From positions 9,548,001-9,612,000 of the forward strand of contig NZ_CP070225.1 in the NCBI RefSeq assembly GCF_021631985.1: a stretch of DNA of 64,000 nucleotides, given 5' to 3'. Source of the stretch: Sandaracinus amylolyticus. Lineage in GTDB: Bacteria > Myxococcota_A > Polyangia > Polyangiales > Sandaracinaceae. Made by a program: the position numbers and the translations under genes. The number at the start of each line of letters is the position of its first letter. The stretch's first letter is position 1. Shown here one piece after another: positions 1 through 12,835 of the stretch. The notes beneath the pieces are model-generated. The model was not told where the DNA came from and made no database searches. It saw nothing but the letters and a program-made list of their open reading frames with translations.

Positions 1-1
1 C

Positions 2-112
2 CACGTGCGCAGCGGGACGCCGTTCTGGTTCCCCCTGGTGATCGCCGCGATGCTCTGGGGCTCGCTCGCCCTGCGTGACTCGCGTGTGATCGCGCTGCTG
101 CGAGGGAAGTGA
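2..112 (+). CDS. C-terminal end of a membrane protein (partial)
   Basis: The window opens inside a reading frame that runs to a TGA at 110-112. The visible tail of about 36 residues has one hydrophobic stretch (WFPLVIAAMLWGSLAL) followed by a short basic end (RVIALLRGK), as expected for the last membrane helix and cytoplasmic tail of an integral membrane protein. The next gene starts 1 bp after the stop, so the two are probably cotranscribed. Too little is present to name a family. Confidence 0.55.
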   Translation, partial: HVRSGTPFWFPLVIAAMLWGSLALRDSRVIALLRGK

Positions 113-113
113 G

Positions 114-527
114 ATGCGCTCCTCGATCGCGCTCGTTCCCTCGGCGCTGCGCAGCACGCGCGCGGTGCTCGCCGGCGCCCTCGTCGTCGCGGTGGTGTCG
201 ACCGCGATCGACATGGCGCTCCACGCGACCGGCATCTATCCGCCCTTCGGAGAGCCGATGTCGGAGTCGCTCTTCGTGCTCGCGCTCGGGTATCGAATCG
301 TGGTGAGCGTCGCAGGCGGATGGCTCACCGCGCGCCTCGCCCCGTCGCGACCGATGACGCACGTGCACGTGCTCGGCGCGATCGGCCTCTTCGCGGGTGC
401 CATCGGTGCGATCGCGACGTGGGACGCGGGCCCGGAGTTCGGCCCGAAATGGTACGCAATCGCGGTCGCGGCGACGTCGCTGCCGAGCGTGTGGATGGGC
501 GGACGGCTGCGCGCGAAGCGGGCGTGA
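114..527 (+). CDS. Small four-helix membrane protein, function unknown
   Basis: The 137-residue product has four hydrophobic segments, at about residues 18-38, 54-72, 84-100 and 110-126, with short polar loops. No catalytic motif is visible. The ATG lies one base after the stop of the upstream partial membrane protein, which suggests translational coupling. Small multi-spanning proteins of this type are common in myxobacterial genomes and are usually annotated as hypothetical. I see no signature that would separate a transport role from a structural one. Confidence 0.7.
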   Translation: MRSSIALVPSALRSTRAVLAGALVVAVVSTAIDMALHATGIYPPFGEPMSESLFVLALGYRIVVSVAGGWLTARLAPSRPMTHVHVLGAIGLFAGAIGAIATWDAGPEFGPKWYAIAVAATSLPSVWMGGRLRAKRA

Positions 528-571
528 ATGCGATCTGCGCTCTCGAGCGTCAGCGCGAGCGCGCGTCGCAA

Positions 572-1294
572 TCAGAGCGTCGGGATGCTCTCCGCGAAGC
601 TCCGGTGCGCGACCGGCCCGTGCGCGAAGAGCGCGTCGAGCATCGCGCAGCGGTCGGGCTCTTCTTGCGCGCTACATGCGAGCCACTCGCTGCGCAGCAG
701 GTCGAGCTCCACGAGATCGGTGTCGCGCGGCCGGAGCGCGCGCGACACGAACGCGTCGGTGAAGTCGATCGTCTCGTCGCGCACCTCGCCGCTGTGGCAC
801 CCGCCGCACGTCGTGCCGCTCTCGTAGCGCACGCGCTCGTAGGGCGCGGCGGGCGAGACCGGCGTCTCGATCGGCAGGTGCAGCTCGGCCTTGCGGCTCC
901 GCGTCTCCTCGACGAATTCGGCGAGCTCGAGCAGCGGCGCGCCCTCTCCGTCGGGCACGACCGAGAGCACCACGTCGCCGATGAACAGGAAGATGCGCGG
1001 GCTGCGCTCGCCGAACGCCGGCTGCGCGCTCACCCGGCTGAGCGTCGCCTCCACGTAGAGCGGCCGATCGAGCGCCTCGAGGAAGCACGGGATCGTGACC
1101 GGCGAGGGCAGCGCGTTGATCAGCGTGACGACCTCGTCGATCGTCCGGGGCGATCCGCTCACACCCTCGGGCGGCGTGCAGCGCCTGCTCGTCGATCCAT
1201 CGCTCTGGGTCGACGCATCACTCGTCGCCCGAGGCGGCGCCGTCGAACAGCCCACCAGCACGATTATCAGGAGCGCGAGCGACCCACGAGCCAT
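572..1294 (-). CDS. Lipoprotein with a single CxxCH motif
   Basis: The start at 1294 is preferred over an in-frame start 30 bases upstream because it gives a clean lipoprotein signal (MARGSLALLIIVLVGC). The mature 240-residue protein opens with a low-complexity Ser/Thr/Asp linker typical of surface lipoproteins. Near the C-terminus it has TTCGGCHSGE, a CxxCH motif of the c-type heme kind, but no distal Met or His ligand can be assigned with confidence and the rest does not resemble a compact cytochrome. It may be a heme-binding lipoprotein or carry the motif by chance. It converges on the membrane-protein gene to its left. Confidence 0.75.
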   Translation of the reverse strand: MARGSLALLIIVLVGCSTAPPRATSDASTQSDGSTSRRCTPPEGVSGSPRTIDEVVTLINALPSPVTIPCFLEALDRPLYVEATLSRVSAQPAFGERSPRIFLFIGDVVLSVVPDGEGAPLLELAEFVEETRSRKAELHLPIETPVSPAAPYERVRYESGTTCGGCHSGEVRDETIDFTDAFVSRALRPRDTDLVELDLLRSEWLACSAQEEPDRCAMLDALFAHGPVAHRSFAESIPTL

Positions 1295-1371
1295 CGAGGC
1301 GCGATCGTGCCGAGAGTCACCCACGTTTCAAGCGCACCTCACGGCACACCCGCGCCCCGGACGAATCCCGA

Positions 1372-2110
1372 TCACGACACCGGCGGCGTCGGCGGCAGCG
1401 GCTCGTCGCCGTCGTCGTCGACCGGCGTCTCGGGCTCGGTGCTCGCGCGCGTCGACGCGCGGTACGCATCGAGCGGGCTCACCGCGCGGCGGAACCGCGC
1501 GACCGACGTCTCGTCGTCCTCGTCGAGCTCTGCGACCAGCACGCGGCTGTACCCGGCGATCGACTTCATCGCGCGCGCGATGGCGTCCTGCACCGCTGTC
1601 GTGCTCGGCATCTCCGGCGTCGACCGACCGAGCCCCAGCGCCTCGCCGAGGCTGGCGTGGGTGATCCGCACGCCATCCAGGAACGGCGCGCCCGCGATCG
1701 TGATCACGTCGCGCTCGACCACGCCGCTCATCTTCGCGAGGCGCGTCTCGCCCTCGAAGAACGCGGTGTCGTAGTTGCCCGCGACGAACGCGAGCCCGCT
1801 CGGGAAGATCGCCTCGAGCACCTCCGCCGCACGCGGCGCGAGCGGATAGACGTCGGGCGCGAGCTTGGTGCCGGCGTCATGCAGCGCGCTCCACGCGCGA
1901 GCGTGCGCGATGCCGAAGGGGCGAGTGCGCGCCGGCTCGCCGAGTCGCGCTCGTGGATGACGACGCGCAGCGATTCGCCATCGCTGCGCATCTGCCGGAG
2001 CGCGCGGTGCAGCAGCTGCGAGGGATCGGCGGGTGCGTGCTTGAGAGGCGGCGCACCAGCAGCACGCCGGAAGGCCCGTCGAAGCGGGGGAGTGGACACC
2101 CGCCTCGCCG
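1372..2110 (-). pseudogene. Decayed gene downstream of the RT gene, two frameshifts, no N-terminus
   Basis: Three stretches of plausible protein lie in three successive frames on the minus strand. Near 2050-2090 one frame reads RFDGPSGVLLVRRL. From about 2040 to 1920 a second reads SLRVVIHERDSASRRALA. From about 1920 to 1372 a third reads PFGIAHARAWSALHDAGTKL and continues to a normal stop. G/C-rich third codon positions follow these frames in turn. The first shift fits a TC duplication in CCTCTCAAG. The second fits loss of one C from a C run. The 5' end is missing and abuts the end of the RT gene. The family is not recognised. Sequencing error in C runs is an alternative cause. If only the last frame is translated it would start near 1821 and give about 149 residues. 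Confidence 0.6.
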
Positions 2111-2114
2111 ATCG

Positions 2115-5111
2115 CTACCGCGGCACTCGCCGTCGACGGCGCGACGCCTTGAACCCTGTCGGAAACGGTTTGAACTCGCTTCGTGAGTCCGGTGCGACTG
2201 TGGTCTGCGCCTCGCGCAACCGACGAATGTTCATCTCAGCCGTAACGAAGAAATCATGAACTCCGCCTTTGATGCGCACCACGTCGCGCCGGAACTCCTC
2301 GCGAAATGGTGCCCGAATTCGGCTGTCGCCGTACTCTCGATTGTTTGCCTGAACGATAAATGCGTGGAGGTCGTGCGCACTCGACTCAACTAGAGCGTTG
2401 AACGTGTTGACGTCAGGATTCCACTCTGGAATGAAGAGCGCGTCTACACTTCCTTGAAAACGTGCCCGGTTTTTAATGCTCGCGAGATCGCTGCAGATCA
2501 GGACCCCAAAAGCCACGTCGCCGTGCTCGTAGACCGGACGCGCCGCCTCCAACTGGCGCGACCCGACTTTCAGCACGCCCCGACCGGTGAGTCGCCGCAC
2601 TTCATCTTCCTCATGCCACGCTGGATGGATCTTCGGCTGCTCGAATGCGACCGCCACTCGGAAGCCGCCCGCATCGGACACGAGAGAGACGAGGGCATCA
2701 TTCCTCGAGCCCCTGTTCGTGCGCTTGTGCTCGAGACCAGCGATCAATGAGATGCCAGCGTTTGCCAACTTAGTCGCGACGGGTGCGGCCCAGTCCCGCG
2801 GTAGCGAGCATTCCGGTAGCGCTACGTAGTGCGGTCGTGCCGTGTCGGAAGTGATGAGTCCGTTCAGCAGGCGCATCAGCGAACTGTATCGCTCCAAACT
2901 ATGGTCCGGAACACCGAGAACCGCGTTGACGAACTGCTGCTCGCTCGTACGCAAATTCACGACGCTCACCCGAACCAGCGCATGCCGTTCGCCGGTGACA
3001 CGGATCGTCATATGACCATCGTTGTCGGTTTCGACGAACGGGAAGCTCGCGCCGCGAAGCCACGTTCCGCGGATCGCATTTACGAATCGATACATGTCGC
3101 CGAATCGGTCCGAACTTGGGCGAAGTGCGGACGAGATCTCGGGGATGCTGGGGCGACGTGTTGAGAAGACAACATGGTTCAGGCTCGGAAGCGGTCGCTT
3201 CGCCTCGTCCGCATACGTGGCGATGTCGCCCGCCGCGAACACGTTCGGGTAGACACCCGTTTCGGCGCTCTCCACTGTCTCGGCCGCGATGTCACCGCGG
3301 ATCCAGGCGCGGTAGTATGGAATCAGACCCCAGTCGACGTCCTTCAGCGCACGACTCTCGGCGGTGACCCACGCCGTCGATTTTCCGTTGTGCGCGTGTG
3401 TGCACCCAAAAACGTCGCACACCCGCGAAACCAGTGCTGCGATGCGAATCTCGTGCGCTGTGTCGCTCTGGGCGCCGAGGATCCGCTCGCGGACGCGGCT
3501 ACCCAGGTTCGCCCAGCAACTTCTCGCCTGCACCGTGCGACCCTGCGCAGTAGTCTCCTCGAGTGTTTCGAGAACGTCGCGTACACGGTCGATTGTCGCG
3601 TCAGCCTCCGACCAGTCGGCGCACCGAGTCATGATTGCAAAGAGATCGGGGATGTAGTTCGCATACTCGAAGAGACCACGCGGCGTGATGAGGTGCCGCT
3701 GGGCCAATCCGTAGAACTCCCGTCGTCTTTCCACCCAAACGTCGGGGTGTAGGTCGCGGACGTGCGAACGAACGTCATTGAGTAGTAGTCGGAAACCAGC
3801 GCGCCGGAGAGTGACCGCGTCGGCCTTGCGGAGCGCGTCCGACTCGAGCGTCGCATCGGAACTGGAGACCAGCGCGTCAGCTGCCATCTCCGACTCGCTT
3901 GGGGGCAGTACTGGAAGTCGTCGGTGCCGACTCGAGAGGCGACGAATCGACTCCTCGATCGGTTTTAGCAGATCGAGACCGGCGGTTCCGGAGAGCTGAA
4001 ATACGCGCTGCTTCTTCCCTTTGAATTCGAGTCTCGAGTTTTTTGCGTACGGGAGCTCGACCTCGATGCCGCCGTCTGGACCTGCTTTCGCCGTGACCAC
4101 CATACCGGCTCGTCTCGTTCCGTAGAGTCGGAGTCGCGCGGCGATCCACTCTAGGACTTCATCCCCGTTGCCGAACAGCTTCGATGGCCGGATGACCAGG
4201 AACACGTCATCAACGTATCGTCCGTAGTAGATGGGCAGCAACTCCTGCGCGACAGCAATGTCGAACTCGGCGAGCAGACAGTTGGCGATAACGCTCGACG
4301 CACTGAGTCCGACGGGCAATCCGCGGCTATGCGGTTCACGTTCGTCCGAGCGAGACCGCCAGAGATTGATCGCTTTTACTAACTTCTGCGTGAACGCGCG
4401 ATCACCCGCTGACAATCGAATATCGAGCGCGCTCAGATAGCTTTCTTCGAGTAGGAATCGGGCGTCGACCTCGTGGTAGAATCGATGAAGGTCCATCGTA
4501 ATGGCGACGATGTCGTGGCCCCGCTCGAGTTCACGACGCATTTCGAAAAGGCCGTTTCGGCGCCAGTTCCCATACCCGATGACGTATGGATCGAAAAGCC
4601 CGTACGCGCGCTCGTTGACACCATCGTGCGAGCCGTCTTGGCCGCGCCGCCTACGGATCCTGTTTCCGTATACGTGCTTTCTACTCAGCACACCATCGTA
4701 GTGCACGCCGACCTTCATGACCCACAGCGCTGACACGATCATGAAATCGACGGTAGCGTCGATTACTGGTCTGAACGTCGCCTTCGCCCTGTGGCCGTCG
4801 GGATTGGACCTCCTCCACTGACGCAGACCATCACTGTCGTAGAACTGCACGGCAGTCGTCGACTCGTCTTTGTCTCCTCTGTCGAGCGACTTCGGCACGT
4901 ATGTGATCGCGCCGAGGAAATCTGGATCCGTATGCCAGTCTGCCGTCCGACTCCGGAGTCGCGCGCTGAGTCCTGTGAGATTGCGCTCAAGATTCCGCTC
5001 GTAGGCAGCGAACTTCGCTCCGTGAGCGGTGTTTGCGTCGAAGTAGGCCTCCTGTTTCGCTTTTCGGTAGGCGATCATCAGATCGTCCATGCTGAACAGG
5101 AGTTTGCTCAT
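2115..5111 (-). CDS. Reverse transcriptase fused to a nitrilase-like domain (candidate class 1 defence-associated RT)
   Basis: The 998-residue protein has an N-terminal reverse transcriptase. Motif A is AITMDLHRFY with Asp207, motif B is GLPVGLSASS (264-273), and motif C is GRYVDD with the catalytic pair at 301-302. A helical linker follows (about 400-650). The C-terminal third is nitrilase-like, with the expected Glu-Lys-Cys triad: Glu767 in ALPECS, Lys827 in EQPKIHPAW and Cys873 in VLICSD. RT-nitrilase fusions are known in the UG1/UG5 group of unknown-group RTs, and DRT type 1 is an anti-phage system. Defence function here is inference. The start has a good ribosome site (GTGAGGA, 4 bases from ATG) and lies 28 bp after the ftsK stop. 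The gene is clearly richer in A and T than its neighbours. Its last residues (SRRRRRVPR) look like read-through into host DNA. There are no VR/TR repeats or maturase domain, so a diversity-generating RT or a group II intron RT is unlikely. Confidence 0.85.
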   Translation of the reverse strand: MSKLLFSMDDLMIAYRKAKQEAYFDANTAHGAKFAAYERNLERNLTGLSARLRSRTADWHTDPDFLGAITYVPKSLDRGDKDESTTAVQFYDSDGLRQWRRSNPDGHRAKATFRPVIDATVDFMIVSALWVMKVGVHYDGVLSRKHVYGNRIRRRRGQDGSHDGVNERAYGLFDPYVIGYGNWRRNGLFEMRRELERGHDIVAITMDLHRFYHEVDARFLLEESYLSALDIRLSAGDRAFTQKLVKAINLWRSRSDEREPHSRGLPVGLSASSVIANCLLAEFDIAVAQELLPIYYGRYVDDVFLVIRPSKLFGNGDEVLEWIAARLRLYGTRRAGMVVTAKAGPDGGIEVELPYAKNSRLEFKGKKQRVFQLSGTAGLDLLKPIEESIRRLSSRHRRLPVLPPSESEMAADALVSSSDATLESDALRKADAVTLRRAGFRLLLNDVRSHVRDLHPDVWVERRREFYGLAQRHLITPRGLFEYANYIPDLFAIMTRCADWSEADATIDRVRDVLETLEETTAQGRTVQARSCWANLGSRVRERILGAQSDTAHEIRIAALVSRVCDVFGCTHAHNGKSTAWVTAESRALKDVDWGLIPYYRAWIRGDIAAETVESAETGVYPNVFAAGDIATYADEAKRPLPSLNHVVFSTRRPSIPEISSALRPSSDRFGDMYRFVNAIRGTWLRGASFPFVETDNDGHMTIRVTGERHALVRVSVVNLRTSEQQFVNAVLGVPDHSLERYSSLMRLLNGLITSDTARPHYVALPECSLPRDWAAPVATKLANAGISLIAGLEHKRTNRGSRNDALVSLVSDAGGFRVAVAFEQPKIHPAWHEEDEVRRLTGRGVLKVGSRQLEAARPVYEHGDVAFGVLICSDLASIKNRARFQGSVDALFIPEWNPDVNTFNALVESSAHDLHAFIVQANNREYGDSRIRAPFREEFRRDVVRIKGGVHDFFVTAEMNIRRLREAQTTVAPDSRSEFKPFPTGFKASRRRRRVPR

Positions 5112-5139
5112 GAGTTCCTCACGATAGGGATGCGGTCAA

Positions 5140-7785
5140 TCACAGCGCACTGATCAAGACCTCTCGTCGCCCGCCCGCCTTCCCAGTTGCCGGCCCCACG
5201 ACGCCCTCGGCTTCCATCTTCTCCACCAGCTTGGCGGCCTTGTTGTAGCCGATGCCGAGCTGACGCTGGATGTGCGAGATCGAGCAGTATCCGGCCGTCG
5301 CCACGCACGCGACTGCGCGGTCATAAAGAGGATCGTCCGACTGCGACGGACCCTCGTCGCCGAGCACTTCGCCGCTCTCTTCGTCACGGGGCGCGAGGAT
5401 CTTCTCGTCGTAGACCGGCTTGCCCTGCTCGCGCAGGTGATCGCAGAGCCCCTGCACCTCGTGCTCCGAGACGTACGCCGAGTGCACGCGACGCAGGTCG
5501 CTGGCGCCCGGCGGGATCATCAGCATGTCGCCCTGACCCAGCAGGTGCTCTGCGCCAATCCGCCCGAGGATCGTCTTGCTGTCCTCGCGCTGGCTCACCT
5601 TGAACGCGATGCGCGCCGGGAAGTTCGCCTTGATCATGCCGGTGATCACGTCGACCGAGGGACGCTGGGTCGCGAGGATCACGTGGATGCCCGCCGCGCG
5701 CGCCTTCTGCGCCAAGCGCGCGATCGCCGCCTCGACGTCCTTCGCCGCGACCATCATCAGGTCCGCGAACTCGTCGACCACCACCACCACGTAGGGCAGC
5801 TTCGTCGGCATCGGCACCGCGTCCGCGGCCTCGTCGTCGACGGGATTCAGATAGACGTCTTCGCCGTCGACGCCCTGCGCCTTCTGCTTGCCCGCCTTCT
5901 TCGGCGCGAGCTTCTCGGGCGCGAGCTCTCCGCGCAGCACCTTCTCGACGCGCTCGTTGTAGGTCGTGATGTTGCGCGCGCCCGCGTCGGCGAAGAGCTG
6001 ATATCGACGCTCCATCTCGTCGACTGCCCACCTCAGCGCGAGACTGGCCTTCTTCATGTCGGTGACGACCGGAAGAAGCATGTGCGGAATCCCGTCGAAC
6101 ACCGCGAGCTCGACCACCTTCGGGTCGATCATCAACATCCGCACTTCTTCGGGGGTCCGCTTCATCAGCAGCGAACAGAGCATCACGTTCAGACCGACGC
6201 TCTTGCCCGCGCCGGTCGCGCCCGCGACGAGCAGGTGCGGCATCTTCGCGAGATCGCCGTAGACCGGCTGGCCCGCGATGTCCTTGCCGAACGCGGTGGG
6301 CAGCGCGGCCTTCTCCGCGTTCTCCTCCCACCGGCGATCCTCGAGGATGTCGCGCAGGAAGACGGTCTGTCGGTGCTTGTTCGGGAGCTCGAAGCCGACG
6401 CGCGCCTTGCCCGGGATCGGCGCGACGATGCGGACCTTCTGGGCCGCGAGCGCCATCGCGAGATCGTCGGCGAGGCCCGCGATCTTGCTGACCTTGGTGC
6501 CGCTCTCGGGCTCGAGCTCGTACATCGTGACGACGGGCCCGGGGTGGATCTCGTCGACACGGCCCTTCACGCCGTACGCCTCGAGCTTCTGCACCAGGCG
6601 CACCGCGTTGTTCTGCAGCGTCGCGGCGTCGATCTCGATCTGCTGCGACGGGGGCGAGTCGAGCAGCGAGGTGGGCGGCATCACGTACTCGGCTCTGCTG
6701 CTCTCGAGGACTCGGTGCTCGACGTCGTCGCTCTCGCGCGCGGGCTCCTGCTTCACGACGTCGGCGCGCGGCGCGACGATCGTCGGGCCCTTCGGGCCCT
6801 CGACCTTGGCGGGCGCGGGCTTGCTCGGGCGCTTGCTCGGCAGCGGGGGAGGGGCGGGCTCCTCGACCTCTTCCTCCTCGTACGCCTCCTCGGCGCTCGC
6901 GACGATCTCTTCCTCTTCCTCTTCGATCACCGGGGCGGCCACGCGCGCCGCCTTCGCCGGCTTCGCGGCGGGCGTGGTGTCGATCGTCGCGGGCTTCTCC
7001 TTCTTCGCGCGCGGCTTCTTCGCCTTCTTCTCGGCCACGACGGGCTCGGGCTCGGGCGGCGCGACCTCCTCGACGATCTCCTCTTCCTCGTCGAGCTCCT
7101 CGTCGGCCTCGGACTGCGACGCGCCGGGGATCACGATGCGCGGCGCGTTCCGCGCCTCTTCTTCCTCGCGCTCGCGCCGCTCGATCTCGCGCGCTTCCTG
7201 CCACGCCTCCCACACCGAGCTCGTCCACTCGCGCGCCGCGCTCGCACCGGCGGCCGCGCCGCCGAACACGGTGCGCGCCGCGCCGACGATCGAGAACGAG
7301 GTGCGCAGCACCATCGTCACCATGATCACCGCGGTCCCGACGACGAACGCGCCGACGAGCCCGAGCAGCGAGCGCAGCACCTCGCCCAGCACCTCGCCGA
7401 ACATGCCGCCCGGCAGGTGCCCACCGAGCACCTCTTCGCCCGGCATCGCGAGGTGCACCATCGCGCATCCGACCAGCACGATCACCAGCGTGCTCGCGAG
7501 GTGCGCGAGCCCGACCGGCGAGCGACGTCGCTGGAAGAGACGGATGGTCAGCAGCGAGAGCTCGAACGGCACCACCCACGCCGCCGCGCCGAACGCGGTC
7601 GCCGCGATGTTGGCGATCCACTCGCCGACCGGGCCGATCCAGTTCTCGCCGCCGCGCGCGTCGTAGGTGTAGAGCGAGAGCGCGAGCAACGTGGTCGCCG
7701 CGCCGCTCAGGATGCCGAGCACCTCGTGGCGACGTCCTTCCGTCGCCAGCGCTCCCATGGTGGATCCGTGCGCACTCATGCCCAC
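5140..7785 (-). CDS. ftsK: DNA translocase FtsK/SpoIIIE
   Basis: This is the 881-residue septal DNA pump that clears and segregates chromosome ends. About four membrane helices fall in residues 20-170. They are followed by a long acidic and Lys/Pro-rich linker to about residue 340, the alpha/beta motor, and a C-terminal winged-helix gamma domain (SISHIQRQLGIGYNKAA) that reads KOPS-type sequences. Walker A is VAGATGAGKS near residue 520 and Walker B is VVVVDEFADL near 670. A GTG at 7785 gives the longest form; ATG at 7779 or 7758 is equally possible. The YciC-like gene is transcribed divergently. The RT gene follows 28 bp after the stop, in a position that would allow read-through from ftsK. 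Confidence 0.96.
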   Translation of the reverse strand: MGMSAHGSTMGALATEGRRHEVLGILSGAATTLLALSLYTYDARGGENWIGPVGEWIANIAATAFGAAAWVVPFELSLLTIRLFQRRRSPVGLAHLASTLVIVLVGCAMVHLAMPGEEVLGGHLPGGMFGEVLGEVLRSLLGLVGAFVVGTAVIMVTMVLRTSFSIVGAARTVFGGAAAGASAAREWTSSVWEAWQEAREIERREREEEEARNAPRIVIPGASQSEADEELDEEEEIVEEVAPPEPEPVVAEKKAKKPRAKKEKPATIDTTPAAKPAKAARVAAPVIEEEEEEIVASAEEAYEEEEVEEPAPPPLPSKRPSKPAPAKVEGPKGPTIVAPRADVVKQEPARESDDVEHRVLESSRAEYVMPPTSLLDSPPSQQIEIDAATLQNNAVRLVQKLEAYGVKGRVDEIHPGPVVTMYELEPESGTKVSKIAGLADDLAMALAAQKVRIVAPIPGKARVGFELPNKHRQTVFLRDILEDRRWEENAEKAALPTAFGKDIAGQPVYGDLAKMPHLLVAGATGAGKSVGLNVMLCSLLMKRTPEEVRMLMIDPKVVELAVFDGIPHMLLPVVTDMKKASLALRWAVDEMERRYQLFADAGARNITTYNERVEKVLRGELAPEKLAPKKAGKQKAQGVDGEDVYLNPVDDEAADAVPMPTKLPYVVVVVDEFADLMMVAAKDVEAAIARLAQKARAAGIHVILATQRPSVDVITGMIKANFPARIAFKVSQREDSKTILGRIGAEHLLGQGDMLMIPPGASDLRRVHSAYVSEHEVQGLCDHLREQGKPVYDEKILAPRDEESGEVLGDEGPSQSDDPLYDRAVACVATAGYCSISHIQRQLGIGYNKAAKLVEKMEAEGVVGPATGKAGGRREVLISAL

Positions 7786-7910
7786 ATCGCAGGGTGCCGT
7801 CAGGGGGCTCGCGGGGTCAACTTTCCGGCACCGCGAATCCCCGCGATTCTTCGGGGGTTGGCGGGATGCTCGGCTTGGCGGACGTGGAGCGCTCTGCTAC
7901 CTGGGCCGCG

Positions 7911-8765
7911 ATGGAGAACCAGACCTGGGGCGCACCAAGCGCGCCTCCCGCGCCCTTGGAGCTCGGCGACGCGATCGCCTCGACGTTCCGCATCGTCGGC
8001 CAGAGCTTCGTGCCCTTCCTCGTGATCGCGCTGATCGTCGTGGTGCCCGCGACCGCGATCCAGACGGTGATCGAGCTCGTCGTCTACTGGGCCACCCAGC
8101 AGTCGCTCTCGTCGATCGGAGGGCCCGAAGAGGCGCTCTCGCTGATGGGCATGGCGAGCGCCGGCTACCTCGTCGTGCTGTTCATCCTGATGGTCACGTA
8201 CTCGCTCGGTCAGGGCGCGATCATGTACCTGACGATCGAGAGCATGGTGGGCCGCAAGGCCTCGGCGTTCGACGCGCTGCGTGCGGTGATCGGCCGGCTC
8301 GTGCCGCTCGTCGTGTGCGCGTTCGTGGTGGGCATCGTGACCGGGATCGGCACCCTCTTCTGCCTCGTGCCCGGCGTGATCGCGTGGGTGTGGCTCATGG
8401 CGGCGTTGCCCGCGTGCCTGGTGGAGCGCCTCGGTCCGATCGCGTCGATGCAGCGCAGCATCGAGCTCACGGAGGGGCACCGGCTCACGATCTTCCTGAT
8501 CTTCCTGGTGCTCTTCGGCGCGTTCTTCGGCGTGACGATGTGCGTGTCGTTGCCCGCGGGCATCGCGGCGGGCGCCCAGGGCGCGGCGGGTCAGATCGTG
8601 CAGAACCCGCTCGCGCCGATGCAGATCGTCGTGAAGCTCGTGACGATGGTCGTGCAGCTCGGGATGACGATGGTGCTCGCGGCCGCGACCGCGGTGGTCT
8701 ACGCGAAGCTGCGCGGGCTGCGCGACGGCGTCGATGCGCAGGCGCTCGCGCGCGTGTTCGCATAG
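7911..8765 (+). CDS. YciC/GPDPase-like multi-spanning membrane protein
   Basis: The start MENQTWGAP is chosen because the hydrophobic domain begins soon after it and upstream codons lie in the ftsK divergent promoter region. The 284-residue product has about six membrane helices and the layout of the YciC/glycerophosphoryl diester phosphodiesterase membrane-domain family. Signs are an N-terminal 'LGDAIASTFRIVGQSF', a mid-protein PGVIAWVWLMAALPA motif with a conserved Pro-Gly, and a C-terminal AVVYAKLRGL tail. No phosphodiesterase catalytic domain is present. It leads an envelope operon with DUF4129, DUF4350 and MoxR genes, which suggests a role in envelope maintenance rather than lipid catabolism. 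Confidence 0.8.
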   Translation: MENQTWGAPSAPPAPLELGDAIASTFRIVGQSFVPFLVIALIVVVPATAIQTVIELVVYWATQQSLSSIGGPEEALSLMGMASAGYLVVLFILMVTYSLGQGAIMYLTIESMVGRKASAFDALRAVIGRLVPLVVCAFVVGIVTGIGTLFCLVPGVIAWVWLMAALPACLVERLGPIASMQRSIELTEGHRLTIFLIFLVLFGAFFGVTMCVSLPAGIAAGAQGAAGQIVQNPLAPMQIVVKLVTMVVQLGMTMVLAAATAVVYAKLRGLRDGVDAQALARVFA

Positions 8766-8780
8766 TCTCGCGCCTCGACG

Positions 8781-9572
8781 ATGCGCGCCCACGCCATGGT
8801 GATCGCTGCGGGCGCGAGCATGATGCTCGCGCTCGCAGTCGTTCCCGCGGCGGCACAGGACGAAGATCCGGCGGCGGTCGCGGCGCGGGTGCGCGAGCAG
8901 GGCGGATATCCGCCCGACGTCAGGGTGCTGGTGCCCGACCACGAAGCGGGCAGCGACGTCGACGGCGCCGAGGGCGCGGGACGTGGGCCGCGCGGCGAGA
9001 CGATCGACGGCGAGCGCGAGTCGCCCGATCCCGGGCCGCAGGTCGAGCTGCCCTTCGTGCGGCGGATCCTCGAGTGGCTCGCGAGCGTGCTCGCGTCGCT
9101 CTCGGGTCCGCTCGGGTACGTGGTCCTCGCGCTCGGCCTCGCGGTGCTCGCGCTGGTGATCGTGTTCTTCGTCGCGAGCCTGCGCTTCCGCGCGCCGCGC
9201 ATCGAGGCGAGCGCGCGCTACGAGGGCACGGGCGAGGGCGCGATCGATCCGCTGCTCGTCGGCACCGGTGAGAGCGCGGACGCGCTCGCGGCGCAGGGCC
9301 GATGGCGCGAGGCGATCCACGCGCTCTTCCTCGACACGCTGGCGCGGGTCGGCGGTGCGGAGGGACGTCATCGATCGCGCACCGCGCGCGAGCTGGTGCG
9401 CGCGATCGACGCGGGTCGTACCGGGCGTGCGGAGCTCGAGTCGCTGCTCGATCTGACCGAGCTCGTGTGGTTCGGCGCGCGCGATGCCGACGAGGATCAC
9501 TTCCAGCAGGCGCGCGCGCTCGCCGAGGCCGCGCCGCGCGGCGCGGTCATCGAAGAGGAGGACGCGTCGTGA
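8781..9572 (+). CDS. DUF4129 domain protein, membrane-anchored
   Basis: The 263-residue protein has a signal peptide ending AAAQ near residue 26, then an acidic and Gly-rich spacer. One strong membrane helix (about 113-135) precedes a cytoplasmic DUF4129 domain. That domain shows the family features: an AAQGRWREAIHALFLDTL helix, an RTARELVRAI segment and a final ELVWFGARDADEDHFQQA signature. DUF4129 proteins are regularly encoded with MoxR ATPases, DUF58 proteins and transglutaminases. The stop overlaps the next gene by 4 bp (GTGA), indicating translational coupling. Biochemical role is unknown. Confidence 0.85.
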   Translation: MRAHAMVIAAGASMMLALAVVPAAAQDEDPAAVAARVREQGGYPPDVRVLVPDHEAGSDVDGAEGAGRGPRGETIDGERESPDPGPQVELPFVRRILEWLASVLASLSGPLGYVVLALGLAVLALVIVFFVASLRFRAPRIEASARYEGTGEGAIDPLLVGTGESADALAAQGRWREAIHALFLDTLARVGGAEGRHRSRTARELVRAIDAGRTGRAELESLLDLTELVWFGARDADEDHFQQARALAEAAPRGAVIEEEDAS

Positions 9573-10798
9573 GCGAGCGCGCGCTCTTCGGTGATCGCGT
9601 GCGCCTCGTCGTGATCGCGGTCGCGGTGATGTCGCTCGTCGCGACGGTCGGTGCGCTGGTGTTCGGGCGGCGGCTGACGACGCCCGAGGCGCAGCCCCGC
9701 GACTCGTACGGCGGGGGCGCGCTCGGACACCGCGCGTTCGTCGAGACGATGCGCGCGCTCGGCGTGCGGGTGCAGCGATGGACGCGCCCCGAGTGGGACT
9801 CGGTCAGCGCGCCGCTGTGGATCATCGAGCCCAACCAGCCGTGGGTGATGTGGCAGTCGAGCACGACGACGCTCGGCGAGCTGGTGCGCGCGCGCGCCGA
9901 CGCCGAGCGGGTCACCGTGATCGTGCTGCCGAAGTGGCGCCCCGGCGTGCTCGGCATGGTCGAGGACGAAGACGCGATCGCGATCGCCGCGATCCTCACC
10001 GAGCTGCCCTTCGCGGTGTCGCTGTCGCGCGGTCCGATCGAGGACGACTGGCAGACCATCGAGGCGCGGGAGCCGGGTCGAGAGGCGACGCGAAGGCTCG
10101 AGCTGCGATGGCCCCAGCGGGTGCAGGGCGGCGTTCCGGTGCTCTCGGACGACGAGGGCAGCTTCGTGGTGCACGACGACAAGGCGCTGATCTACGTGGT
10201 GTCCGATCCCGACCTGCTGCACTCGTTCAACCTGCAGCGCGGGGCGCACGCCGCGTTCTGGCGGGACTTCGCGCGCGACACGCTGCACGCCGAGGACATC
10301 GTCGTCGACGAGGTCTTCCACGGCGCGGTGCGCACGCGATCACTGCCCGAGCTCTTCGGGCGATGGCCCGGCGTGCTGGTGCTGGTGCACGGCGCGATCG
10401 TCGCGCTGGTGGTGCTCCTGATGGGACGGCGCCGCTTCGGTCCGCCCGATCCGATCCCCGAGGCGCTCGGTCGCGGGCCGCGCGAGGTGATCGAGGTCGC
10501 GGCGTCGGTGCTCGCGAACGGCTCGCGCGAGACGACGCTCGCGCTGCGCTACGTCGAGGACGTGATCGGCGATCTGCATCGACGGCTCGGCCTGAGCGAG
10601 GCCGCGACGGTCGACGCGCGTGCCGCGTTGATCGATCAGGCCGCGGAGCGACGGCGCGTGGGCGCGAGCGCGACGAAGCTGCTCGCCGAGGCGCGCGCCG
10701 TGGAGAAGACGCGGCGGCGGCGCGAGGCGCTGGTGATCGCGCGACGCGCCGCGGAATTGCGCGCGGCGCTGATGGGGAAGAAGGAGGAGCGGGCATGA
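9569..10798 (+). CDS. DUF4350 domain protein
   Basis: Translation from the GTG that overlaps the DUF4129 stop gives 409 residues: an N-terminal membrane helix (RVRLVVIAVAVMSLVATVGA), an extracytoplasmic alpha/beta domain and a second helix near residues 265-285 (GVLVLVHGAIVALVVLLMG). A basic helical cytoplasmic tail follows. The N-terminal 'GHRAFVETMRALGVRVQRW' and the YVVSDPDLLHSFNL segment are typical of DUF4350, a GATase-like fold often sited between DUF4129 and MoxR genes. In-frame upstream codons are ignored because they lie inside the DUF4129 gene. Function is unknown but probably linked to the MoxR chaperone-like system. Confidence 0.85.
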   Translation: MSERALFGDRVRLVVIAVAVMSLVATVGALVFGRRLTTPEAQPRDSYGGGALGHRAFVETMRALGVRVQRWTRPEWDSVSAPLWIIEPNQPWVMWQSSTTTLGELVRARADAERVTVIVLPKWRPGVLGMVEDEDAIAIAAILTELPFAVSLSRGPIEDDWQTIEAREPGREATRRLELRWPQRVQGGVPVLSDDEGSFVVHDDKALIYVVSDPDLLHSFNLQRGAHAAFWRDFARDTLHAEDIVVDEVFHGAVRTRSLPELFGRWPGVLVLVHGAIVALVVLLMGRRRFGPPDPIPEALGRGPREVIEVAASVLANGSRETTLALRYVEDVIGDLHRRLGLSEAATVDARAALIDQAAERRRVGASATKLLAEARAVEKTRRRREALVIARRAAELRAALMGKKEERA

Positions 10799-11751
10799 CC
10801 CCGGACGTGGTGCGGCATCACCTGCGCGCGCTGAGCGAGCAGATCGGGCGCGTGGTGTACGGCGCGGAGGAGCACACGCGCCTCGCGTTCGTCGCGATCG
10901 CGGTGCGCGGGCACGTGCTGCTCGAGGGCGTGCCGGGCACCGGCAAGACGCTCTTCGCGCAGTGCCTCAGCCGCGCGCTCGGCCTTCCGATGCGGCGCCT
11001 GCAGTGCACGCCCGATCTGATGCCCGGCGACGTGCTCGGCGCGAACGTCTTCGACTTCCGCACCCAGACGTTCCACCTGACGCAGGGCCCGGTGTTCACC
11101 GAGGTCCTGCTCGCCGACGAGATCAACCGCACGCCGCCGAAGACCCAGAGCGCGCTGCTCGAGGCGATGCAGGAGCGCAGCGTCACGATCGACGGCACGA
11201 CGCACTCGCTCTCCGATCGCTTCACCGTGATCGCGACCCAGAACCCGGTGGAGCAGGAGGGCACGTACCCGCTCCCCGAGGCCCAGCTCGATCGCTTCTT
11301 GTTCAAGCTCGACGTGGGCTATCCCGCGTTCGAGCAGGAGCTGCGCGCGGTGCTCACGCACGGCGGCCAGGCGGGCATGCCGCCGATCGACTCGCTCGGC
11401 ATCGAGCCGGTGATGGACCCGCAGCAGATCGATCAGCTGCGCACGATGCCGGGGCGCGTGCACCTCGATCCGAAGATCGGCGAGTACGTGGTCGGGCTCG
11501 CGCGCGCGACGCGCCAGCATCCGGCGCTCGCGGTCGGGCTCTCGCCGCGCGCGGCGACGATGCTCGCGGCCGCGGCGCGCGCGGCGGCGCTCTGCGCAGG
11601 GCGCGACTTCGTGGTGCCCGACGACGTGAAGAGCCTCTTCGTCCCGCTCGCCCACCATCGCGTGGTGATCACGCCGAGCGCGGAGATGGAGGGCGTGCGC
11701 GTCGAGACCGCGCTCGCCGAGATCCTCGCGCAGATCGCGCCCCCGAGGTGA
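10795..11751 (+). CDS. MoxR-family AAA+ ATPase
   Basis: The 318-residue protein is a complete MoxR ATPase. Walker A is GVPGTGKT (about residues 45-52), Walker B is LLADEINR (about 103-110), and the sensor region is ATQNPVEQEGTYPLPEAQLD with the MoxR signature. A lid domain follows. MoxR proteins act as chaperone-like unfoldases that work with VWA or DUF58 proteins. ATGA overlap with the DUF4350 stop shows coupling. The DUF58, SpoIIM and RDD genes normally found beside moxR are about 7 kb away at 18.8-22.2 kb on the same strand. An 84-bp repeat array follows the stop within 10 bp. Confidence 0.95.
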   Translation: MTPDVVRHHLRALSEQIGRVVYGAEEHTRLAFVAIAVRGHVLLEGVPGTGKTLFAQCLSRALGLPMRRLQCTPDLMPGDVLGANVFDFRTQTFHLTQGPVFTEVLLADEINRTPPKTQSALLEAMQERSVTIDGTTHSLSDRFTVIATQNPVEQEGTYPLPEAQLDRFLFKLDVGYPAFEQELRAVLTHGGQAGMPPIDSLGIEPVMDPQQIDQLRTMPGRVHLDPKIGEYVVGLARATRQHPALAVGLSPRAATMLAAAARAAALCAGRDFVVPDDVKSLFVPLAHHRVVITPSAEMEGVRVETALAEILAQIAPPR

Positions 11752-11757
11752 GTGCCC

Positions 11758-12009
11758 GCGGGAGTGCTCGTCCCGCCGGTCCCGGACGGGAGCGCGCGAA
11801 GCGCGCGGACGGTAGGGCCCGGTGGGCGAGCCGAGTTGTTTGCGGGAGTGCTCGTCCCGCCGGTCCCGGACGGGAGCGCGCGAAGCGCGCGGACGGTAGG
11901 GCCCGGCGGGCGAGCCGAGTTGTTTGCGGGAGTGCTCGTCCCGCCGGTCCCGGACGGGAGCGCGCGAAGCGCGCGGACGGTAGGGCCCGGCGGGCGAGCC
12001 GATTTCTTG
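11758..12009 (+). repeat. Three tandem 84-bp structured repeats
   Basis: Near-identical units start at 11758, 11842 and 11926. Each can fold into one long hairpin: GCTCG-T-CCCGCCGG near the left pairs with CCGGCGGG-CGAGC near the right, and the tip holds GCGCGC-GAA-GCGCGC. The unit length is a multiple of three, so the array stays open as a 28-residue repeat, but nothing suggests it is translated. A diverged single copy lies at 55846-55923. The array separates the MoxR gene from the next gene and could act as a transcription attenuator or mRNA-stabilising element, by analogy with REP/BIME sequences. Confidence 0.9.
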
Positions 12010-12019
12010 AGACAGTGAG

Positions 12020-12835
12020 ATGATCACCGATCGAGATCCCGAGCTGGTCGCGCTCGCGCCGCTCGCGCCGCCGCGGACCGTCGCGACGAGCTGGCTGCGG
12101 CTGGTGGTGCGCGATGCGAGCGGGTGCGAGCGCGGCGCGCGCACGCTCGACGCAGCGGACGCGCGGGTGTGGTGCGACGCGGCGTTCGCCGACGATCACG
12201 TGGTGGTCGTGATCGAGGAGACGTTGACCGGCGCCCAGCAGGTGCAGGCGTTCCACGTCGAGAGCGGCGCGCCCGCGGGCCTGCACGTGCGGGTCGACGA
12301 CGCGCGGATCGCGACCCATCCCGGGCTGCGCGAGGTGGTGATCGCGACGGCGCGCTCGCTCGCGGTGTGGGGCGTGGACGGCACGCGCCGCGGCGAGTGG
12401 AGCGGCGTGTACGTCGGCGAGAGCGCGCTCGGCGCGTCGATCGTGGTGCACGTCGACGAGGATCTGATCACGGTGCTCGATCGTGGGCGCGGGACGCGGC
12501 GGCACGTGCGCAACCCGCGACGTCGCGAGCCCGACGCGGTGTCGCTCGATCCCGACGAGCGGCACGTCGACGTCGTGTGGAACGGCGGCAAGGTCGATCG
12601 CATCTCGCTCGACGACGGACATCTCGCGCCGCTGGGGCATCACCTCGGCGCGCGGTGGATCGTGAGCCGGCCCGATCGCGTGTACACGGCGGACGAGAGC
12701 CTCGTGATCGAGCGGACGATCGCGACCGGCGCGACGCGGGTGATCGAAGGCGTGCACGGGCCGCTCGGGTGGGCGGCCCGCGAGGGTGTCCTCCTCGGCG
12801 TGTCGTGCGGGCGTGTCGTCGCGACCGACGTCTGA
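12020..12835 (+). CDS. Hypothetical protein, beta-rich
   Basis: The ATG at 12020 follows the repeat array by about 10 bp. The 271-residue product has no signal peptide. It is dominated by alternating short hydrophobic strands and turns (for example VVVVIEETL, REVVIATARSLAVWG and VDVVWNGGKVDRISLDDG), suggesting a beta-propeller-like fold without an assignable catalytic site. It may be the last gene of the MoxR operon, though the hairpin array could reduce read-through. The gene to its right is convergent with a 3 bp gap. I do not recognise the family. Confidence 0.7.
   Translation: MITDRDPELVALAPLAPPRTVATSWLRLVVRDASGCERGARTLDAADARVWCDAAFADDHVVVVIEETLTGAQQVQAFHVESGAPAGLHVRVDDARIATHPGLREVVIATARSLAVWGVDGTRRGEWSGVYVGESALGASIVVHVDEDLITVLDRGRGTRRHVRNPRRREPDAVSLDPDERHVDVVWNGGKVDRISLDDGHLAPLGHHLGARWIVSRPDRVYTADESLVIERTIATGATRVIEGVHGPLGWAAREGVLLGVSCGRVVATDV

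What the first reader, a model, noticed from the sequence alone, without database searches (positions are those of the whole stretch)
2115..5111. RT-nitrilase fusion: candidate anti-phage reverse transcriptase in a myxobacterium
Seen: RT motifs A (MDL, Asp207), B (GLPVG) and C (YVDD), plus a C-terminal nitrilase-like domain with Glu767, Lys827 and Cys873, all in a gene that is visibly A/T-richer than its neighbours. Known: RT-nitrilase fusions of the UG1/UG5 unknown-group RTs, and DRT type 1, protect against phages. Inference: this is a class 1 defence-associated RT acquired by transfer. It stands alone rather than in a defence island, and no ncRNA space exists between it and ftsK.
Basis: partly seen in the sequence, partly recalled or inferred. 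Interest (0 to 1): 0.85.

Follow-up and report, generated by a model that had tools for sequence, protein, structure and literature searches.

The report
Intact UG5 reverse transcriptase–nitrilase defence gene
An apparently intact, horizontally acquired single-gene anti-phage candidate that joins a DNA-making reverse transcriptase to a nitrilase-type enzyme; it belongs to a family (UG5-nitrilase) already named in databases and tested in E. coli, so it is a good new member rather than a new kind of system.

Summary
ORF 2115-5111 (-) encodes 998 aa and matches PADLOC RT_UG5-nitrilase over residues 6-997 (E 5e-254). RT aspartates D207/D301/D302 and nitrilase tetrad E767-K827-E834-C873 are invariant in 76 of 76 aligned proteins; the AlphaFold2 model (pLDDT 90) has a nitrilase fold at 708-988 (Z 24). 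The gene has low GC3 (0.70 against 0.89-0.94), no full-length relative in 37 other related genomes, and abuts a gene that is intact in a same-genus genome but broken here: transfer. [quoted passage not shown] New here: S394, the only invariant serine, as candidate primer; a C-terminal K-x-x-P-x-G motif aligned with the DRT1 lid; and relatives inside BREX operons, in 10 of 81 loci between the two halves of a split pglX. A UG5 RT-nitrilase with a membrane partner already defends E. coli. No activity was tested here.

The parts
2115..5111 (-). UG5-type RT-nitrilase gene, 998 aa
   Evidence: PADLOC PDLC03780 E 5e-254 over residues 6-997
3912..5111 (-). N-terminal part with the RT domain (about residues 1-400, limits set by eye)
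   Evidence: Pfam RVT_1 residues 198-325, 31.7 bits, cut-off 29.6; AF2 model; Foldseek matches to G2L4 RT, DRT2, Abi-P2
4491..4493 (-). Asp207, motif A
   Evidence: 76 of 76
4308..4322 (-). GLPVG, residues 264-268, motif B
   Evidence: column counts (G264 66, P266 61, G268 75 of 76)
4206..4217 (-). YVDD, residues 299-302, motif C
   Evidence: Y299, D301, D302 76 of 76, V300 74 of 76
3930..3932 (-). Ser394, candidate DNA-priming residue (prediction)
   Evidence: Only Ser invariant in 76 of 76; also in L098 and L099; near the DRT1 priming stretch, not exactly on it
2994..3818 (-). mostly helical middle region, about residues 432-706
   Evidence: AF2 secondary structure
2148..2990 (-). nitrilase-fold domain, residues 708-988
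   Evidence: VIA-align Z 24.3, rmsd 2.7, 240 aligned to amidase 4kzf
2811..2813 (-). Glu767, nitrilase tetrad
   Evidence: 76 of 76
2631..2633 (-). Lys827, nitrilase tetrad
   Evidence: 76 of 76
2610..2612 (-).
   Evidence: 76 of 76
2493..2495 (-). Cys873, nitrilase nucleophile
   Evidence: 76 of 76; aligns with DRT1 C1116 (alignment; C1116 named)
2151..2171 (-). C-terminal K981-P-F-P984-T-G986-F987, candidate active-site lid
   Evidence: K981, P984 76 of 76, G986 73, F987 68; hhalign aligns it with the DRT1 C terminus, while hmmsearch ends in another register; DRT1 K1219A and A1223F act like C-terminal deletions
5140..7785 (-). ftsK, host gene 28 nt upstream, left junction of the insertion
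   Evidence: 96% identical to same-genus G001
1375..2089 (-). broken remnant of the next host gene (three frames, first 16 codons not found), right junction
   Evidence: tblastn of the intact 262-aa G001 protein

Best explanation
A complete UG5-type (class 3 UG/Abi) defence-associated RT, gained by horizontal transfer and inserted between ftsK and its neighbour. Proposed mechanism: without any RNA template, the RT domain adds deoxynucleotides to a residue of its own chain, predicted to be Ser394. The attached DNA assembles the protein into oligomers, which builds a nitrilase/amidase active site (E767, K827, E834, C873) but keeps it shut by the C-terminal lid (K981-x-x-P984-x-G986-F987). A phage process that disturbs the DNA or the assembly opens the lid, the nitrilase acts on an essential small molecule, and the infected cell stops before phage release (abortive infection). 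Shown here: gene integrity, family, predicted fold, catalytic residues, transfer. Inferred by analogy with DRT1 and with purified DRT5S/DRT5L (which I take to be UG5-small and UG5-large): everything about activity. Unknown: trigger and substrate.
For: Full-length UG5-nitrilase profile match; tree position with UG5-nitrilases L016, L017, L049, L026 (SH-aLRT 99); 76 of 76 conservation of the RT and nitrilase catalytic residues, S394, K981 and P984; nitrilase fold; AF2 pLDDT 90, pTM 0.92. Papers: DRT1, DRT5S and DRT5L make covalently attached DNA without template; DRT1 needs both active sites and works by abortive infection (PMC13275509, sections 4, 5, 7-10 and passages); a UG5 RT-nitrilase with a transmembrane partner protects E. 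coli (PMC9122126, section 8 and passages). Transfer. BREX or type I RM genes near 28 of 81 relatives.
Against: No activity was tested. The DRT1 authors say S402 is not conserved in other class 3 DRTs; the profile alignment puts S394 five residues before S402 and ends there. For the lid, hhalign and hmmsearch give different registers, and the residue at the DRT1 A1223 position is variable in UG5, mostly Asp or Glu. The UG5 system shown to defend had a 1-TM partner, absent here; a crude hydropathy scan found a downstream TM-bearing ORF in 5 of 81 loci. 53 of 81 relatives have neither BREX nor type I RM genes in the fetched flanks. Identity to any relative found is at most 43% full length (L016). 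S394 could be structural. That DRT5L means UG5-large is my inference.
Confidence: 0.75

Rival explanations
1. Same family, but the nitrilase is a structural scaffold and the effector is the DNA product or a separate membrane protein, as the P4-satellite system might suggest.
For: The UG5 system proved in E. coli carries a transmembrane gene, and L098 shows such a gene overlapping the RT stop; about 18% of drt1 genes are next to drt1b.
Against: E767, K827, E834 and C873 invariant in 76 of 76; DRT1 C1116A abolishes immunity; no TM gene beside the window copy apart from ftsK, and 5 of 81 loci with a downstream TM-bearing ORF by a crude scan.
Confidence: 0.1
2. A decaying, non-functional acquired gene.
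For: The neighbouring host gene is a broken remnant; no partner genes found; one full-length copy in the genome.
Against: 998-aa ORF without a stop, every family-invariant residue kept, confident fold, start codon with a purine-rich leader 28 nt after ftsK.
Confidence: 0.08
3. Not defence: an RT-nitrilase adopted for a host role next to ftsK.
For: 28 nt behind the conserved ftsK, possibly co-transcribed; no promoter-like site in 1900-8000 (0 found, 0.7 expected; that scan covers sigma-70-type sites only).
Against: Absent at the same site in the same-genus genome and no full-length copy in 37 other related genomes; 28 of 81 relatives near BREX or type I RM genes.
Confidence: 0.05

Closest known systems
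UG5-nitrilase RT (PADLOC PDLC03780 / PDLC02995; class 3 UG/Abi RT; probably 'DRT5L' of PMC13275509)
   Same: Whole-length profile match, RT and nitrilase active sites, S394, C-terminal motif
   Different: At most 43% identical to any relative found; no BREX, RM or TM partner found; sits behind ftsK
RT-nitrilase + 1TM system of P4-like satellites (Rousset 2022, PMC9122126; a like architecture at L098)
   Same: UG5 RT-nitrilase fusion with the same catalytic residues (L098)
   Different: L098 is 22% identical; integrase and an overlapping 229-aa gene with a hydrophobic N terminus there, none here
DRT1 (UG1), PDB 9YFD
   Same: RT plus helical region plus nitrilase, Cys aligned with C1116, C-terminal K-x-x-P-x-G aligned by hhalign
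   Different: Separate branch in the RT tree; 1229 aa; best Drt1a stretch covers only the nitrilase here; priming-site position not identical
UG5-small RT with a separate nitrilase gene (L099)
   Same: Related RT, S394 kept; the second gene matches the nitrilase end of the same UG5 profile
   Different: Two genes: 646-aa RT and a 307-aa nitrilase

Membership tests
UG5-nitrilase (class 3 UG/Abi RT) | Full-length match to the family profile | tested here: met
   E 5e-254, residues 6-997, profile 21-900 of 907
UG5-nitrilase (class 3 UG/Abi RT) | RT domain with motif A Asp and YVDD | tested here: met
   D207, D301, D302 76 of 76
UG5-nitrilase (class 3 UG/Abi RT) | C-terminal nitrilase fold with Glu-Lys-Glu-Cys | tested here: met
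   Fold Z about 24, residues 76 of 76; pocket geometry not measured
UG5-nitrilase (class 3 UG/Abi RT) | Phylogenetic placement within the group | tested here: met
   Quick ML tree of 90 RT regions: SH-aLRT 99 subclade with L016, L017, L026, L049; the fork that parts all UG5 rows (and the odd row L193) from five DRT1 RTs has only 80; 22 of 87 inner branches open
[quoted passage not shown]
   Reported for DRT1, DRT5S, DRT5L
UG5-nitrilase (class 3 UG/Abi RT) | Anti-phage activity | not testable with these tools
   Reported for another UG5 RT-nitrilase with a TM partner
DRT1 / UG1 | Full-length Drt1a profile match and DRT1 clade | tested here: not met
   81.4 bits, best stretch 764-986; outside the SH-aLRT 100 group of five DRT1 RTs
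Class 1 UG/Abi RT | RT with HEAT-like repeats, no nitrilase | tested here: not met
   Nitrilase domain present; class definitions
DRT class 2 / retron | Associated template ncRNA | tested here: inconclusive
   No Rfam family at gathering score in 1-12000; 28 nt upstream gap; undescribed ncRNAs not excluded

The most novel reading that the evidence does not exclude
UG5 RT-nitrilases are add-on effectors of DNA-modification defences: single proteins that prime DNA on a family-wide serine (S394 here), hold a nitrilase under a C-terminal lid, and in some lineages have become built into BREX, with the gene lodged between two halves of pglX. The window copy would be a free-standing member of that set, showing that the module can be mobile alone.
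Probability: 0.25. Interest if true: 0.6.

Novelty: new member of a known kind. Interest (0 to 1): 0.36.

Why it matters
RT-nitrilases are the least understood class of defence RTs: how DNA attached to the protein controls a nitrilase, and what the nitrilase destroys, are open. This member comes with an alignment that names exact residues to test (S394 for priming, K981/P984/G986 for the lid, E767/K827/E834/C873 for catalysis) in a compact 998-aa protein without an evident partner. The recurrent placement of relatives inside BREX operons, between halves of pglX, is a lead on cooperation between DNA modification and RT-based defence.

Tried and rejected
Rejected: class 1 (nitrilase present); DRT1 membership (partial profile match, separate branch). 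9YFD is not among the Foldseek rows shown, but that library ends at 2026-04-08; the link to 9YFD comes from sequence. Rfam scan of 1-12000: nothing. Phage records: no tblastn match. Repeat scan of 1950-5200: only short imperfect repeats, none reading as terminal or target-site repeats. Promoter scan: nothing; terminator-like sites 8 found, 3.3 expected, not used. First genome-contig scan with the single protein: none of 17 stretches confirmed; the second, with alignment A1, gave 80 kept loci. Profile comparison of full-length alignments aligned only the nitrilase parts, so RT parts were compared apart. A search for UG5-small in 377 genomes of the phylum found only the window gene itself. Family controls: at E 0.001 the UG5-nitrilase profile also rings in 2 and 1 of 14 control genomes, at 1e-30 in none. 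Paper searches for BREX together with reverse transcriptase and pglX, with nitrilase, and with pglX/pglZ insertions, and term finds in PMC9716671, PMC9122601 and PMC8565348, showed no report of this RT inside BREX; a Mestre 2022 paper by its recalled DOI is not held, so it may be described there.

Rows dropped: of 80 loci, 69 went into A2; left out were L027, L032, L058, L067, L070, L077, L079, L087 (incomplete ORF, broken ORF or contig end), L037 (near copy of L034), L075 and L084 (no start codon found by my script). L098 and L099 were not in A2. Five kept rows (L033, L038, L043, L073, L076) were translated from a non-start codon near the match start. The context counts use 81 loci: those whose ORF covers over 90% of the match, plus L014 and L015. 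They are biased to what the pattern scans found, gene families were assigned by blastp clusters with PADLOC on representatives, and no background rate was measured.

PADLOC scans of single neighbours and of the L099 and BrxB ORFs were added.
Full report
OBSERVATION. The ORF at 2115-5111 (-) is real and uninterrupted, 998 aa from ATG 5111. It starts 28 nt after the ftsK stop and has a purine-rich leader. PADLOC gives RT_UG5-nitrilase over residues 6-997 with 843.9 bits, E 5e-254; next come another UG5-nitrilase model (166 bits), RTasNitrilase (148), RT_UG5_small (99.5) and Drt1a (81). Pfam reports only RVT_1, just above its cut-off. NCBIfam has no model above its cut-off. In the PDB by sequence, the single protein matches DRT1 (9YFD) and Drt3a, and the profile of 76 relatives matches 9YFD at 1.5e-25 in an RT and a nitrilase stretch.

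RELATIVES. tblastn finds ten plasmid records, five of them matched over at least 80% of the query (Sinorhizobium meliloti, E. coli), and no phage record. A scan of viral contigs confirmed 107 of 218 and kept 80, of which L096 and L097 are full-length at 35-37% identity, L098 a more distant full-length one and L099 a split one. In 377 genomes of the same phylum, 3 had a match at E 1e-30 or better, the window's own included. Of 38 related genomes only the window's own has a full-length copy; six others that reached E 0.001 gave partial matches, best 2.2e-11.

CONSERVATION. In 76 aligned proteins (A2) D207, D301, D302, E767, K827, E834 and C873 are 76 of 76, as are S394, K367, K981 and P984. S394 is the only serine invariant in all 76; it is also kept in L098 and in the UG5-small RT L099.

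FOLD. AlphaFold2 from 72 sequences: mean pLDDT 90.0, pTM 0.92, one segment of three or more residues under 50 (417-424). Residues 708-988 superpose on nitrilase-superfamily amidases with Z up to 24.3, rmsd 2.7 over 240 residues. Foldseek also lists G2L4 RT, DRT2, Abi-P2, DRT4 and AbiK. The VIA list is filled by the nitrilase domain, so the RT part was not tested there.

PHYLOGENY. A quick maximum-likelihood tree of 90 RT regions places the window protein with L016, L017, L049 (Verrucomicrobiota) and L026 (Armatimonadota), SH-aLRT 99; five DRT1 RTs form a separate group with support 100, and the fork that holds the UG5 rows has 80. Of 87 inner branches 22 are open and several rows are long. The row named DRT1_L193 was so named before its profile was known: one search shows it is no full-length DRT1, and it falls outside that group.

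TRANSFER. GC3 of the gene is 0.698 against 0.89-0.935 in four neighbouring ORFs. In the same-genus genome G001, DNA matches the window up to 2096 and again from 5139, at 87-93% identity in the matching blocks, but the RT is missing; G001 has about 1.7 kb of other sequence there, with a lipoprotein-like reading frame on the other strand and repeated motifs by eye. The next gene is intact in G001 (262 aa), but in the window its first 16 codons are not found and the rest lies in three frames (1375-2089). So the site behind ftsK differs between sister genomes, and the arrival of the RT most simply explains the damaged neighbour. The repeat scan shows no mark of the mechanism.

SOLITARY. Of 18 other ORFs scanned one by one on both sides, only a protein-kinase-like ORF and FtsK matched PADLOC models, both plausibly by shared domains. 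The scan of 59 ORFs listed 25 of 83 families.

MECHANISM. PMC13275509 (outline, abstract, sections 4, 5, 7, 8, 9, 10 and passages) shows for DRT1: template-free, protein-primed synthesis from S402, RT (D324/D325) and nitrilase (C1116) both essential, abortive infection, tetramers and filaments, and a domain-swapped C terminus that closes the nitrilase pocket. It also reports DNA synthesis by purified DRT5S and DRT5L. I take DRT5S/L as UG5-small/large because they are called class 3 and S/L; the parts I read do not spell this out. The window's C873 aligns with C1116. Its C-terminal K981-P-F-P984-T-G986-F987 aligns by hhalign with K-T-K-P-A-G of the DRT1 relative L195. The 9YFD C terminus reads K-T-Q-P-A-G-F at 1219-1225 (letters, numbering worked out by me and agreeing with the named mutants K1219A and A1223F, which act like C-terminal deletions). 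Against this, hmmsearch ends in another register, setting UG5 F-K on DRT1 1225-1226, and the UG5 residue at the A1223 position is variable. The DRT1 priming stretch reads G400-T401-S402-S403. UG5 S394 lies at the end of the matching helix: from the conserved lysine it is 27 residues on in UG5 and about 29 in DRT1 (my count), while the profile alignment sets S394 five residues before S402 and stops there. The authors state that S402 is not conserved in other class 3 DRTs. S394 as primer is therefore a prediction, not a result.

ARCHITECTURES AND CONTEXT. Three gene arrangements were seen: a fused single gene (window and the loci counted below); a fused gene with an overlapping 229-aa gene whose N terminus is hydrophobic, in a contig with an integrase (L098), like the P4-satellite system that protects E. 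coli (PMC9122126, section 8; that L098 is that very system was not checked); and UG5-small followed by a separate 307-aa nitrilase, which matches profile positions 636-898 of UG5-nitrilase at 1.4e-92 (L099). Of 81 loci, 16 have BREX genes and 12 have type I RM genes in the fetched flanks, none both, and 53 neither (families by PADLOC on representatives). In 10 of 81, pglX is in two pieces with the RT gene between: the N-terminal pieces match L038 PglX up to residue 544-596, the C-terminal pieces from 592-605. The C-terminal piece begins within 250 nt of the RT stop in all 10; the N-terminal piece ends within 150 nt of the RT start in 4 of 10 (L047, L050, L074, L081), and 0.5-2.0 kb away in the other 6, so other sequence or genes also lie between the halves there. 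In L074 the RT ORF overlaps both neighbours. PADLOC itself has half-length PglX models, so split pglX as such is known. In L038 the RT lies between a full-length pglX and pglZ. The window's close relatives L016 and L049 have a large Eco57I/MmeI-type methyltransferase upstream, and L016 also a helicase-domain gene and an RNA-ligase-domain gene; L026 has a type I restriction enzyme gene downstream. The window copy has none of these.

VERDICT. Sound observation, largely sound interpretation with one wrong class label. A new, divergent, apparently intact member of a described and partly tested family. The residue-level predictions and the BREX context of relatives are the parts a specialist might not know; I saw no paper on the latter in the searches named, but the classification paper could not be read.

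Noticed in passing
L028, L034, L037, L047, L050, L074, L078, L081, L084, L088: The UG5 RT-nitrilase gene lies between the two halves of a split pglX in BREX operons (10 of 81 loci); the C-terminal half follows within 250 nt in all 10, the N-terminal half is within 150 nt in 4.
   Followed up: partly
L021, L022, L026, L033, L039, L053, L065, L069, L072, L083, L085, L087: UG5 RT-nitrilase relatives with type I restriction-modification genes in the flanks (12 of 81 loci).
   Followed up: partly
L099:5983-8851: UG5-small RT (646 aa) directly followed by a separate 307-aa nitrilase matching the nitrilase end of the UG5 profile: a split version of the fusion.
   Followed up: yes
window 1375-2089 (-): Broken remnant of a host gene of unknown function that is intact (262 aa) in the same-genus genome G001.
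   Followed up: yes
L187:2750-4424 (G001): The site behind ftsK in the sister genome holds a different 1.7 kb with a lipoprotein-like reading frame and repeated motifs, so the spot varies between genomes.
   Followed up: partly
window about 11750-12020: ORF translations show a unit of about 25 residues repeated three times, hinting at a tandem DNA repeat.
   Followed up: no
L193:1-3504 (Leptospira plasmid): 1167-aa RT-nitrilase-like protein matching neither UG5 nor DRT1 profile at full length: possibly another class 3 group.
   Followed up: no
L194:3998-6391 (Sphingopyxis plasmid): 797-aa DRT1-like RT that ends before the nitrilase region; a weak nitrilase-type match (E 0.1) lies elsewhere on the same plasmid.
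   Followed up: no
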